In this document: piece after piece, positions 5,083 through 60,876 of the stretch
Numbering within the stretch: position 1 is the first letter of the stretch
How the letters are laid out: each line of letters opens with the position of its first letter
NCBI GenBank assembly: GCA_963969365.1
Contig: OZ017752.1
Coordinates: forward strand, 1 to 64,000
Direction of reading: 5' to 3'
DNA: 64,000 nt
DNA from: Asterochloris sp. CNOR1
Lineage: Eukaryota; Chlorophyta; Trebouxiophyceae; Trebouxiales; Trebouxiaceae
The notes under the pieces: generated by a model
Database searches by the model: none
Told to the model about the DNA's origin: nothing
The model's input: only the letters and a program-made list of their open reading frames with translations
Made by a program: the position numbers and the translations under genes

Positions 5083-8000
5083 TCACACTTTCTGGGACAG
5101 CGCCTGCAAGGTGCCCCTCTGCTGAGCTTCCACCTGGGATAGCACGTGCCTGCTGGCCGAATCAGGCTGTGCCAGGTCCATCAGGCGGCCCACATTGATG
5201 GGGCCTTCCTCAGTCTCTGACAGGCCAAACTCGTTCAGCTTGTCTAGCAGCATGCGCAGCTCATCCTCTCCCAGCTGCTGTCGCAGAAAGCCCATTGCTG
5301 TCTCAAGCTCCTCACGGCTGATCTGCAGGCATTGGCAGATGTACCTTTTCAGGTGCTGGCAGCAACCTGCATGAGTCCACAGCTTACGAGACGCTCCCAC
5401 TGACAGCCACAGGTGCACCAGCCAGGACTTATCAGAGGAGGCACAAGAAAGATGTCAATTTCACTGCAACCAGCAGCAGCAAGACCATGGTGGAAGAACG
5501 AGCAACAATGCCATAGGAGTGCTGATGCCAAAAGGGTCTACCAACGATGTTGAGCATCGTCTGACCATGTGTTTGAGAACGTTGCAGCGCACTGGCACCA
5601 GACACGTGCCAGGCCATGATCATCCATTTCAGAGGTTGCGTGTCTGATTTGACGGTGTGACAGGCCAGTCAAGGCAGCACCAGCTCAATGCAGCACACAG
5701 ACAGCAGGCACCCGCCAGACCAATGTTGTGCAGGGCAGGGACTGTCCGTGTGTTGCAATGCTTTTGACAGGCCACAGCAAGCAGCCACAGCTCAGTGCAG
5801 TGTATCGGCACAGGCACCCACCAGGGTGCTGTCGTCAAGTCCAGTGATTCATCAGAACTCTCAACTAACACGCCACAAAGAGCAGCACCAACTCGTGCAT
5901 TGCACTGGCATCAAGTGCTCACCAGGCCATCATTGTCCAGGTCAAGGATGTGCATGCGTTCCCCGATCTTCTCGTCCACCGCGTCCAGCTCAGTCTCAAT
6001 GCGCTGCAGGATTCCACTGACCTTGTCTGAAAGGCGCTTGGCAGGGACAATCTCCTGCAGCTGCTCAGGACGCTCCACCTGCCAACAAGGCGCATGCAAT
6101 GGTCAGACAGGAGGTGAGACAGTTCCTGGGCATGGCACAACTCTGGATGAATGGTTCTTGTCATTGCAATGCACTGACAGTGCAGGGTGTCCATGCTTTG
6201 AGCATTGCTTCTTGTACGGGGTGGTGAAGTGGCGCTCTTGTCTGCCAAATTATGCTTCATATCCAAGCACAGTTGCAGCAAGAGGCTTTCAAAGCTCCCA
6301 GACAAAAAGACAGGAGGTACCATGCTAACAGCCTTAGGAGCGCAACAATCAGGAGACTATGGAGAGAGGAAGCATCATGCCACTCCTGCACTTGCCAAGG
6401 TGCTCTGGTGAAGGCAGGAGCAGCGCACTACTGGGCAAGCCTCATGCGGGCCAGGCATACAGCATCAAAGCCTCCCTGACAAGGCTCAAGCTGCAGCAGT
6501 CAAGCCAGAGAAGCACAAGTGCCTGTGCTGCCCTGCACTGACCAGTGCAGGTGGGCTGTTCAAACCTGGTGCCTGCCAGGCAGCCTGCCACCAGTGTGGA
6601 AGGTCATGGAGAGCCTCTTTGCAAGGACCCAGGCTGCAACAATCAGGCAGGTGAAACCCACCAGCCTGCAATGCTTTGTGGAGACCAGCACAGACATGCA
6701 GTCCAGGGCAGACTCTCTGCCTGCCAGGCAGCCCACCTTGACGCCGCCAGCATGGAAGACCATGGAGACAGAGCCGCGGGCACCCATATCCTCGTTCAGG
6801 CGATCAATCTCATTTTTGACCAGGCCCATGAAGGACTCGCGCTCTGTCGAGACGCCGCTGCCGCTGGCCAGCACCGCCAGGGCACTGCAGAGCAGACAGG
6901 CAGGCAGCGTGGGAGAAACACCACTGCATGTCCAGCTGAAGCCTGCTGGAAGAAGTTGGCCTTTGAGCACGCCAAACTTGAAACCCTGCATAGCATGTTA
7001 GCAGCCAGCACTCCGGGCCAACTGAGGGCCCGCTGGTGGGGAGCTAATGCCATGGGCTGCTGGTACCTGGAGACCCCCAATGGGTGCCTGTGGCAGCCAG
7101 GATAGCATCAGAAGGCCGGGTGCCGGCCAGCCCAGCCATCAAGTCGGCAGGGATTTGCACAGACAACCTCCGCTCCACTCAATTCTGCCAGCAGCGCGGC
7201 TATGGGCAGATTGGCCACTGCACCTGACTCACTCTCAAGCACAACAATACCTTGGCAAAGGGAGACTATGGGCACGCCTGCAATCACCGGCACGGCATTG
7301 AAAGGCAGACATCTCCAGGGCATGAGAGCTGAGCTTGCTGCTAGCAAAACAGGAGCAACTCTGCATCCTTCACGGCACAGCACAACTGTCAACTGCTGAT
7401 CTCGCTCCGCTCCATATTCAGGCAGCAGGCTGTTGCTGCACTCCAGATTTGCAACAAGTTTTCTGCCCAGCAGAAGCAACAGAGTCTCAGGGATTAGTCG
7501 CCCACCTGATGACTTTGCGCATCTTGTCCTCCTTGGCAGCAGCCATTTTGCTGCTCTTCTCCTCCTCGCTCTCACCCTCAAGCGCGTCCATCACAGCGCT
7601 GGCGGCTGCCTCGCGCACCACGGCTGCTGCAGCCGCTGCCGCAGCCATCTGCAGGCAGGGTGACACAGTGTCCCTACCAATAGAACTTTGCTGTGCAACA
7701 TGGTTGATGGGTGCCATTTTTGGCACAGCCTACACACAAAGCCTCCAGGATAGGGCGCAGCCGATAGTGGCAAACCCGTGAATGCGGGCGGGGCTGCACT
7801 ATTGCTGCAACAGCAGCAGATGCCTCTATGTGCAGGCATGTGCTACTAGCGGGAAGCGCAGACAATTAGGTGGGCACGTGCCTGACTTTGGGCTGGGCGT
7901 AGGGTGGCAAGTTGCAGGACTGTAGCAAAGGCAGTGCAGCCTCACCAGACAGGCCTTGCTGCCCACCTGTGCCTCAAGCCTCTGGGCCCATCTGCTGGCA

Positions 8001-58600: not shown

Positions 58601-60876
58601 AGTGCCGAGATCCTTCTGCTCTCCTGCAAGTGATGGCCTCTCCTCTAGCTCTCGTGCTGATTGTGCAGGTTGCAGCCCTATAGTTGCAATGCAGATTGCC
58701 GTTGAGCCTGCCCCTGCAAATGAAGAGCTCTTTTCTGGACCGCCTGCGCTTCGTGCTGTTGTCAGACCTTGCTGCAGAGTTGGCCTCTCCACCTCCCCCC
58801 CCCCCCCCCCCCCCCCGCATGGCGGCGGCCTCAATTCTAGATACCCCTTGCAGCGTGTCATGCTCACAACCTTCGTGGCAGACTGTGCGGGGTTTGCTTG
58901 ACAGCCCGCAACTCCTGCTTTCCGCCGCTAGGAATGTTCAGTGCCCCAGGGAGCTGAATTTAGGATTTCTGCGCTCGTGCAGGTGGTGGCCTCGTCTCTT
59001 GATCGCCTTCAGTCAGTCTTGCTCACAAACTTTGCCGACAAAGAAGACCTGGTGACCTGCCTCAAGGCCAGCGCCAATGTGCCCAAGATTGCGGGGGACC
59101 CTGTCGTGCACCGCGGGGAGCGCCTCGTCGACGCCGCGGTCTTCGAGGCTGTGCCCTGGCGGGCTGCCATCGCAGACGGGTGCACGCACGTCGTGGTGCT
59201 CTGCACGCGCCCAGCCTCCAGGTGGGGCTGCACGGCTGGTGGGGACTGCTTGGCATGATGCAATGCAAATGCGCAGGTCCTCGGCCGCAGCAATCTGGGT
59301 GCTCGTGCACTGCAGAGCCCAGCGTCTGCTTGAGGTTGCAGAGGGTGGCTGGTTTGATGTTGTGCCGCCGCCAATGCCGTGCTGCTCAGTTTGTGCAGAG
59401 CCTGTGCCCAGGCAGGGGGCGTAAAGCAAGGCTGTGTGCTTCCTCTGGTGGGTACCTGCATTGCTGTACCTTTGCTAGGATACCTTTCAGCTGTGGGATG
59501 TAGTCACTACCTAGGTCCGGGGGGGGTGCTCTGTGCTGTCTGCAGAGCAAATAGCACAGTGATTGCTCTGCACAGCGGGTTTGCTCTGCACAGTCTACCT
59601 GCACCGACCTTCTGGCACACCCCACCTGACGCCTCTGGCTCCTGTGCTCCAGACAAGGGCGGGTGCGTAAGGCGATGTCAGGCCTGTTTGAGGGCGCCGT
59701 CAAGAAGGCTGTCCTCAGCCCGGCCTACATGAGGCCCGCCTGGCAGCGCGAGGTGGCTGTCATGGTGGAGGAGGGGCTGACAGCAGACGAGATGCTGCTT
59801 CTCAGCCTGGAAGAGGGCGCTGACCAGCTCCCCTTCTTTGCTGGCTCCCACGTCTATCCAGTCTACCCTGGCCCTGGCGCCAAGTGAGCTGGCCCTTGTG
59901 GTTCATGATTGACTCGCTGTCGTTCCTCAGGCAGTTGCCCAGCTGCAAGGCGTGCTAATCTGTGATGGAAATCCGCTGCCTTTCTGCTTTGGAACTGCAC
60001 TCATTGCCAGTGCAGGCCTAGCAGGGAGTCTGACACTGGCCAGACTCGTAAACGTCCACAATATGTCCACTGCTTGCAATTACTGTGCAATGCATCGGGC
60101 TTTGCTTAGGCAACCTCCCCATGCTTTGCAATCTAGACTGGTCACCTGCCACCTCAAAGGCGATGCCACCACCACTCACCACCACTACCACCACCAGCTC
60201 CCACAGAACCTTGGATATCCTCTGTTTGGTCCAGGTACGCGCCCGTCAGCATTGATGTGCCCACGCTGCACCGCGGACTGGTGGAGGGCCGCCAAGCAGT
60301 GCGGCGAATGCTGCAGCCCTACAGCCGACACGTGGAGGCTGTCTTCGAGCCTGTCATCGTGCCCCAGCTGAGCCCCGAGCAGCACCGGCGCCTGGCAGTG
60401 GCCACTGCTCAGCTGTACGCTGCAGGTGAGGAGGGTGGTGGCAGACGCAAATTGACAGCTCCAAGCAGCACGATGTGCTGGTGCTGCAACAGGCAGCTCT
60501 TTGGGGAAGGGAGGAGGGCTGCATTGACCTCATGGTCAACATCAAGCTGTACGCTGCAGGTGGAACAAGTTGTGGCAACCCACAGAAGGTTGCTCTGAGC
60601 GCCGCACAAGACACCACCTCCGAGACACATGTGAAAGTGGGCGCCGTCAGCCTCTCCCTGTTGCAGGCGCCAGGCAGAGTTCTCAAGACTGCATGGACCA
60701 GACCTGTATGTTGTCCAATGCATAGTGGTCACCTTGCCTTCATGAGACAACACAAGAGGTGGGCACTGACAGTCTGTGCTCTCCCTGTCACAGGCGCGAG
60801 GCAGTCCTTCAAAGACTTCATGGACCTCGGAGACGGCATGTGCTCCAACCCAGAAGCGTTCTCCCCAAAGCGCTGA
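55667..60876 (+). CDS. Patatin-like phospholipase / acyl hydrolase
   Basis: Supported exons: 55667-56026, one near 56200-56428, 57123-57286, 57627-57784, 58332-58429, 58983-59221, 59653-59883, 60235-60425 and 60794-60876 (stop). From 57123 to the end all phases match. Patatins are lipid acyl hydrolases with a Ser-Asp dyad. Visible are the oxyanion loop VIEGGGMRGAVSAGGLLE, the nucleophile motif GSSAG in DAIYGSSAGAINATYFLSGQ, and the catalytic Asp in RLVDAAVFEAVPWRAAIADG. This D-A-A version, with KEDLVTCLKASANVPKIAG before it, resembles a plant/algal family of uncharacterised patatins. The 5' exons encode an acidic, Ala-rich segment followed by a basic run (LLMLRRRRRGGREKKEEEE), probably a disordered extension. 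The start codon and the joint between the 56.4-kb and 57123 exons are unresolved. The C-terminus is MCSNPEAFSPKR. Confidence 0.85.
58455..58900 (+). repeat. Ghost copies of patatin exons in one intron
   Basis: After the exon 58332-58429 (DFVKPLDWLAVLDSPIP), a decayed copy reads TGGGACTTTGTCGAGGCCCT then GGACTGGCAGGCGGTTCTTC (58474-58512; DFVEALDWQAVL). Before the exon at 58983 (ASSLDRLQSVLLTNFADKED), two copies occur: 58722-58780 (KSSFLDRLRFVLLSDLAAE) and 58850-58885 (CAGCGTGTCATGCTCACAAC then CTTCGTGGCAGAC). None has a full exon structure. Confidence 0.8.
58795..58816 (+). repeat. Homopolymer run of 22 C
   Basis: This uninterrupted C run lies in a patatin intron, immediately after a ghost exon. 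It is the longest G/C homopolymer in the window. Its length should vary between cells or reads, and the complementary G strand could form secondary structure. Confidence 0.9.
60540..60710 (+). repeat. Ghost copies of the last two patatin exon edges
   Basis: AAGCTGTACGCTGCAGGTGG (60545-60564) echoes the working exon end CAGCTGTACGCTGCAGGTGA (60411-60430). GCAGGCGCCAGGCAGAGTTC then TCAAGACTGCATGGACCAGA (60664-60703) echoes the working last-exon start ACAGGCGCGAGGCAGTCCTT then CAAAGACTTCATGGACCTCG (60790-60829). The two offsets are about 134 and 126 bp. Confidence 0.8.

What the first reader, a model, noticed from the sequence alone, without database searches (positions are those of the whole stretch)
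6565..60829. Introns repeatedly contain tandem ghost copies of adjacent exon edges
In LETM1, the F-box/LRR gene, TRAPPC11, SCAMP and the patatin gene, introns hold one to three decayed copies of the neighbouring exon's end plus its flanking intron, at spacings of about 90-135 bp where measured. At least twelve cases are visible (6572, 14511, 33300, 34146/34278, 39351/39441, 40222/40330, 40436, 43452, 46877/47011/47145, 52230/52281/52347, 58474/58722/58850, 60545/60664). Most copy the acceptor side, a few the donor side. This suggests a genome-wide process in which local tandem duplication across a splice site lengthens introns and leaves cryptic splice sites. That would be a simple route to intron growth, intron gain or new alternative exons. 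The copies are seen; the mechanism is inference.
Basis: partly seen in the sequence, partly recalled or inferred. Interest (0 to 1): 0.85.

Follow-up and report, generated by a model that had tools for sequence, protein, structure and literature searches.

The report
Introns with copied exon edges
In this genome, probably a green alga's, short pieces of DNA are often copied to a spot roughly 100-300 bases away, and when that happens across an exon border the spare copy sits inside the intron and decays there; the effect is real, but it looks like ordinary neutral mutation, not a special machine for making introns.

Summary
In 314 kb of the same genome, the 60 nt at a confident exon edge has a decayed copy in its own flanking intron (within 500 nt) at 34 of 659 edges: 18 of 329 acceptor, 16 of 330 donor. 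Edges from other loci give 0 of 13,180, reverse complements 0 of 659, the opposite edge of the same exon 0 of 659.

Two corrections. Acceptors are not favoured. Splice sites need not be special targets: intron tiles also have local copies (73 of 3860), and the 2.4-2.8-fold excess at edges (95% interval about 1.2-4) includes the 2-fold expected if selection freezes the exonic copy while the intronic one drifts.

Local repeats are nearly all same-orientation (175 direct, 4 inverted within 500 nt), some iterated at one period. Ghosts drift like non-coding DNA; their splice signals decay about as fast as the rest. Intron gain by this route is not supported. Best reading: recurrent short-range direct (tandem) duplication lengthens introns neutrally and leaves cryptic splice sites.

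The parts
6570..6612 (-). Ghost of the donor edge of LETM1 exon 6737-6884 (partner 6718-6768)
   Evidence: score 35, p 0.010; orthologous place in relative protein P0029
14512..14562 (-). Ghost of the acceptor edge of exon 14285-14421 (partner 14390-14440), spacing 122
   Evidence: 40/51 identical
33276..33343 (-). Ghost of the acceptor edge of LRR exon 32755-33230 (partner 33155-33220); further copy at 33398-33428
   Evidence: 51/68 and 25/31 identical
34141..34194 (-). Copy of the acceptor edge of exon 33907-34050, spacing 133; overlaps a low-scoring predicted exon 34133-34183
   Evidence: 46/54 identical
34262..34319 (-). Second copy, about 135 further on
   Evidence: 42/58 identical to the first copy
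39348..39485 (+). Two ghosts (39348-39394, 39439-39485) of the acceptor edge of TRAPPC11-gene exon 39554-39722
   Evidence: 40/47 and 43/48 identical
40084..40389 (+). 111-nt tandem array that takes in the donor end of exon 40032-40187 and its intron
   Evidence: 2.8 copies; no other copy found in the genome
40434..40480 (+). Ghost of the acceptor edge of exon 40732-40941, spacing 293
   Evidence: 38/47 identical
43454..43484 (+). Weak ghost of the acceptor edge of exon 43571-43659
   Evidence: 24/31 identical, score 27
46864..47253 (+). 134-nt tandem array of copies of the acceptor edge of TRAPPC11-gene exon 47315-47468
   Evidence: 2.9 copies; 84-98% alike; no other copy found in the genome
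52205..52378 (-). Overlapping copies of both edges of SCAMP exon 52045-52176; part is called as a low-scoring exon 52311-52370
   Evidence: 39/47, 51/60 and 51/59 identical
58473..58508 (+). Ghost of the donor side of patatin exon 58332-58429, spacing 101; overlaps an exon call of score -1.3
   Evidence: 30/36 identical
60545..60562 (+). Copy of the donor edge of exon 60235-60425, spacing 134; start overlaps an exon call of score 5.9
   Evidence: 18/18 identical
60652..60699 (+). Ghost of the acceptor edge of low-scoring exon 60794-60839, spacing 127
   Evidence: 38/48 identical

Best explanation
Short-range, same-orientation (tandem) duplication, mostly over about 40-300 nt, is a frequent and largely neutral mutation throughout this genome. 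When the copied stretch spans a splice site, splicing that keeps using the outer site leaves the protein unchanged, so the event survives and the intron grows by one unit holding a spare exon edge and splice signal. The spare copy then drifts like ordinary intron. It stays recognisable longer than an intron-intron duplicate because the exonic original is held by selection. Shown here: the copies, their local and same-orientation nature, repeated steps of one period in some, non-coding decay, and decay of splice signals at about the background rate. Inferred: that the outer sites are the ones used, neutral fixation, and the DNA event itself (most likely end joining or fill-in at staggered breaks, or replication slippage).
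For: Own-edge copies 34 of 659, other-locus controls 0 of 13,180. Excess of direct repeats confined to spacings under about 500 nt. 175 direct against 4 inverted within 500 nt, and a third copy at the same period in 28 of 282 tests against 10 of 2840 (several tests come from the same arrays). Edge-to-intron ratio 2.35-2.75, intervals 1.22-3.97, compatible with 2. Mismatch rates at codon positions 0.139, 0.136, 0.188. 8 of 34 ghosts with a frameshift, 55 of 153 changed codons synonymous; my hand estimate for a freely drifting ghost plus synonymous drift of the exon is about 36%. TGCAG identity 0.86 against 0.82 on the exon side. Arrays are private to their loci.
Against: Only 25% of 237 flanks beside repeat cores are homologous, while simulated whole-unit duplicates of 65-90% identity give 40-70%, so many events may be part-unit copies. 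The direct test of slower decay on exon-crossing copies is inconclusive. The edge ratio could also hold a real excess above 2. Exons come from my own gene finder; splice sites are not RNA-verified.
Confidence: 0.72

Rival explanations
1. The process is directed at exon borders: transcription- or splicing-linked damage makes splice sites duplication hot spots.
For: Edges exceed intron tiles 2.4-2.8-fold; edge-crossing pairs 30 against 11.5 (sd 4.1) after rotating the annotation.
Against: Intron interiors also show local copies (73 of 3860); the intervals include the 2-fold expected from selection holding one copy; with a looser exon set the edge excess shrinks to 24 against 17.5 (sd 4.5).
Confidence: 0.15
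2. The copies are templated filler DNA: a broken end copies a short stretch nearby and pastes it in, so units are partial and spaced.
For: Flank homology is low: 25% of 237 flanks; median core 39.5 nt.
Against: Filler copying should also give inverted copies, but 4 inverted stand against 175 direct; equal-period third copies point to tandem units.
Confidence: 0.2
3. The copies are real alternative or duplicated exons, used in some transcripts.
For: 8 of 16 ghost acceptors and 5 of 11 ghost donors score above the 10th percentile of real sites; the 134-nt array copies can be read as 24-nt in-frame exons.
Against: Differences are nearly even over codon positions; 8 of 34 ghosts are frameshifted; splice signals show no extra upkeep.
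Confidence: 0.1
4. Chance similarity or shared composition.
For: Donor and acceptor consensus share CAG|G; 58722 is such a case.
Against: Composition-matched controls are at or near zero.
Confidence: 0.02

Closest known systems
Small tandem duplications from end joining with CST / Pol alpha-primase fill-in (PMC8355091; start of abstract and passages seen)
   Same: Short, local, direct-orientation duplications; the passages call them the most common short (<100 bp) insertions in the human genome and a route to genome expansion.
   Different: There induced at cut sites in mouse and human cells; here inferred from old copies in another lineage, with longer spacings and incomplete units. The enzymes were not tested.
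[quoted passage not shown] potato RdRp case, PMC4974935; passages seen)
   Same: Tandem duplication across an intron-exon border; that paper also mentions an 83-bp tandem duplication inside an existing intron that did not change the gene structure.
   Different: Here existing introns hold the copies; the donor-to-acceptor signature of a new intron is at 2 of 400 introns against 0.2 expected.
Long introns of core-Reinhardtinia green algae (PMC8226300; passages seen)
   Same: Intron-rich; median intron lengths 198-343 there, about 215 nt here. The passages say whatever drives intron length there is likely ancient and the advantage of long introns is unknown.
   Different: The passages I saw do not describe exon-edge copies in introns.
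Introners (PMC9860276, seen in a search listing only)
   Same: Lengthen or add introns.
   Different: Introners copy to many genes; the two arrays searched match nowhere else in this genome.

Membership tests
Short-range direct (tandem) duplication | Copies local and in the same orientation | tested here: met
   175 direct against 4 inverted within 500 nt; excess confined to short spacing
Short-range direct (tandem) duplication | Whole unit repeated head to tail | tested here: inconclusive
   Met for the 111- and 134-nt arrays; only 25% of 237 flanks homologous over all repeats
CST / Pol alpha-primase small tandem duplication | Depends on end-joining and CST genes | not tested
   Would need mutants; the genes were not searched for
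Intron gain by tandem duplication (Rogers) | Donor and acceptor surroundings alike at a spacing equal to intron length | tested here: not met
   2 of 400 at identity 0.45 against 0.2 expected; a looser search gives 6 of 400 against 0.2, at least three of them in the window arrays
Introner | Similar copies in many unrelated genes | tested here: not met
   Two arrays searched, each matches only itself; other ghosts not searched
Tandem alternative exons | Copies under coding constraint | tested here: not met
   Codon-position mismatch rates 0.139, 0.136, 0.188; 8 of 34 frameshifted, 1 of 34 with a stop
Tandem alternative exons | Used in transcripts | not testable with these tools
   No RNA data

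The most novel reading that the evidence does not exclude
Local direct duplication is a main, continuing source of intron length in this lineage, and because each event across a splice site plants a ready-made second site, it supplies a standing pool of usable alternative splice sites: about 5% of exon edges carry a detectable copy, and about half of the copies whose site can be read score within the normal range.
Probability: 0.3. Interest if true: 0.65.

Novelty: new member of a known kind. Interest (0 to 1): 0.42.

Why it matters
Intron length differs widely between genomes and its mutational sources are rarely visible. Here the exon keeps a nearly fixed reference copy, so each ghost records one intron-growth event and the decay of a spare splice signal. 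That makes intron growth and the fate of spare splice sites measurable within one genome. My eight literature searches, judged by titles and abstract starts, listed no genome-wide survey of exon-edge copies in introns; they cover only openly licensed papers, and two close papers cited by others were not held.

Tried and rejected
Chance and composition: rejected by controls. Introner family: rejected for the two arrays searched. Intron gain: rejected as a general outcome. Acceptor bias: rejected. Subtelomere effect: the window region is richer than elsewhere, but L027 and L028, fetched as a test, gave no confident exon edges, so it is untested. Slower decay of exon-crossing copies: direct measurement inconclusive. 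The random control is inflated, by my reading because some random tiles lie inside the target they are compared with; one search replaces it with tiles from other loci. Rfam found nothing in the window. Ghost-bearing introns are longer (median 486.5 against 248; 18 against 382 introns; p 0.017), but longer introns also give more room for ghosts. Detectable local repeats cover only 9330 of 260,620 non-coding bases and touch 102 of 741 introns, which does not by itself show that they are a main source of intron length. The organism was not identified; the homologous proteins carry no organism names. The gene finder was seeded with 13 window ORF segments picked by eye. Dropped before the edge counts: exons scoring under 8 or shorter than 60 nt (357 of 757 kept), and edges with less than 80 nt of free flank.
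Full report
What was examined. The window is the first 64 kb of a 3.3 Mb contig (C7) of an unnamed 56.4 Mb genome in 21 contigs. It opens with a CCCTAAA repeat array. Pfam matches support the names LETM1, LRR, TRAPPC11-like (Foie-gras_1), SCAMP and patatin, 5 of 10 ORFs matched a family and 5 did not. An F-box was not looked for in the whole gene. 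That this is a green alga is inference from telomere type, composition and gene content, not a tool result. I added 270 kb of the same genome (L002-L028), 334 kb in all; the main edge counts use 314 kb.

Exon borders. No annotation was at hand, so I wrote a gene finder, seeded with 13 ORF segments picked by eye and then trained on its own predictions. It settled on sharp signals, donor AG|GTGAG and acceptor CTGCAG|G, with 60 gene models, 697 introns and a median intron of 215 nt on 314 kb. Some neighbouring genes look merged and some small exons are doubtful, so the edge counts use exons scoring at least 8 and at least 60 nt long (357 of 757).

The observation. The general test compares 60 nt at an exon edge with up to 500 nt of its own flanking intron. 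At score 34 or more, 18 of 329 acceptor and 16 of 330 donor edges have a copy. Edges from other loci give 0 of 6580 and 0 of 6600; reverse complements and the opposite edge of the same exon give 0. The ghosts are real, local and found on several chromosomes. There is no acceptor bias.

It is not only exon edges. Across 264 kb, direct repeats at spacings of 20 to about 300 nt far exceed those at 1-6 kb; at score 36, spacings of 100-120 hold 14 against 0.0 expected. There are 153 repeat pairs at 40-500 nt. Intron tiles of 60 nt have a local copy in 73 of 3860 tests, with 0 in the other-locus control and 4 for reverse complements. The rate at exon edges is 2.73 times that (interval 1.52-3.77); over six thresholds the ratio runs from 2.35 to 2.75 with intervals between 1.22 and 3.97. 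If selection holds the exonic copy while the intronic one drifts, divergence grows about half as fast and the pair stays visible about twice as long, so a ratio near 2 needs no targeting. An excess above 2 is allowed by the data but not shown. Rotating the annotation gave 30 edge-crossing pairs against 11.5 (sd 4.1) and 61 exon/non-coding pairs against 40.4 (sd 6.7) with confident exons, but 24 against 17.5 (sd 4.5) and 56 against 52.2 (sd 6.6) with a looser exon set.

What kind of duplication. Within 500 nt there are 175 direct and 4 inverted repeats at score 34, which speaks for slippage or tandem duplication over filler copying. A third copy at the same period turns up in 13 of 140 tests for exon/non-coding pairs, 12 of 114 for non-coding pairs and 3 of 28 for exon pairs, against 2 of 1420, 7 of 1140 and 1 of 280; several of these tests come from the same arrays. 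Two window arrays are plain tandem repeats, 111 and 134 nt, and neither was found elsewhere in the genome. Against a simple picture, only 25% of 237 flanks beside repeat cores are homologous, while simulated whole-unit duplicates of 65-90% identity show 40-70%. Either many events copy less than a full unit, or later indels have eaten the units.

Fate of the ghosts. Mismatches between ghost and exon fall almost evenly on codon positions (0.139, 0.136, 0.188; 42 ghosts). Of 34 ghosts, 8 have a frameshift and 1 an in-frame stop; 55 of 153 changed codons (35.9%) are synonymous against 20.8% for random changes. My hand estimate for a freely drifting ghost plus synonymous drift of the exon is about 36%. 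So the ghosts behave as non-coding DNA. Splice signals: on the acceptor side, identity to the real copy is 0.86 over TGCAG, 0.82 on the exon side and 0.68 further into the intron, and AG is kept in 11 of 17; on the donor side GT is at 0.71, the exon side at 0.78, the intron at 0.63, and GT or GC is kept in 8 of 12. That is about the background rate, with no clear purging or upkeep. Even so, 8 of 16 ghost acceptors and 5 of 11 ghost donors score above the 10th percentile of real sites, against 6.4% and 12.5% at random intron places. Whether any is used is unknown.

Age. Relatives' open reading frames that run from an exon into the intron give a glimpse. Of eight relatives of the LETM1 ORF, one (P0029) reaches the ghost: it is identical to the window over its first 37 residues, across the exon end into the intron, then diverges, and shows TGGGLPGRH where the window has TGGRLPGRH, at the matching place; the intron around it is homologous too. 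That ghost predates the split from this relative. The other relatives end earlier or cannot be aligned beyond the exon.

Direct test of slower decay. When cases are chosen by exon similarity, the exon side is more alike than the intron side (0.766 against 0.641, 34 cases), but the choice itself favours this. Chosen by intron similarity the two are equal (0.720 and 0.726, 13 cases). Chosen by the inner exon part, neither stands out (0.633 and 0.593, null 0.581, 11 cases). This remains open.

Intron gain and intron size. If duplication made new introns, donor and acceptor surroundings would resemble each other at a spacing equal to intron length. Two of 400 introns reach 0.45 identity, 0.2 expected; a looser search gives 6 of 400 at score 30 (control 0.2), at least three of them in the window arrays. 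Gain is not a general result here. Detectable repeats cover 9330 of 260,620 non-coding bases and touch 102 of 741 introns, so the share of intron length that arose this way is not known.

Conclusion. Targeting of splice sites and intron gain are not. It is a clear, quantifiable instance of small local duplication, a mutation class known elsewhere (PMC8355091 and PMC4974935, passages seen).

Noticed in passing
whole 334 kb sample, 336 confident donors: GC instead of GT at 24 of 336 predicted donors, high if real; the gene finder allows GC, so false calls may inflate it.
   Followed up: no
whole 334 kb sample, 336 confident acceptors: Very strong acceptor hexamer CTGCAG|G: CTGCAGG at 114 of 336 sites, T at -5 in 90%, G at -4 in 93%.
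   Followed up: no
window 1-423: CCCTAAA repeat array, 60 copies: the window begins at a chromosome end.
   Followed up: no
window 47027-47050 and 47161-47184: Copies in the 134-nt array can be read as 24-nt in-frame exons adding VQADGYAM to the TRAPPC11-like protein; RNA would tell.
   Followed up: partly
window 6720-6740 (minus strand): The first residues read from the LETM1 intron (VGCLAG) are the same in four relatives (P0023, P0024, P0025, P0029), beyond the donor consensus.
   Followed up: no
window 29714-30355: This ORF has 20 relatives at 42-99% identity, most from ENA and some on contigs over 1 Mb, so DNA of close relatives exists for a copy-number comparison.
   Followed up: no
L016 4454-4846: A repeat of about 180 nt at spacing 226, 87% identical, a rather young case outside the window.
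   Followed up: no
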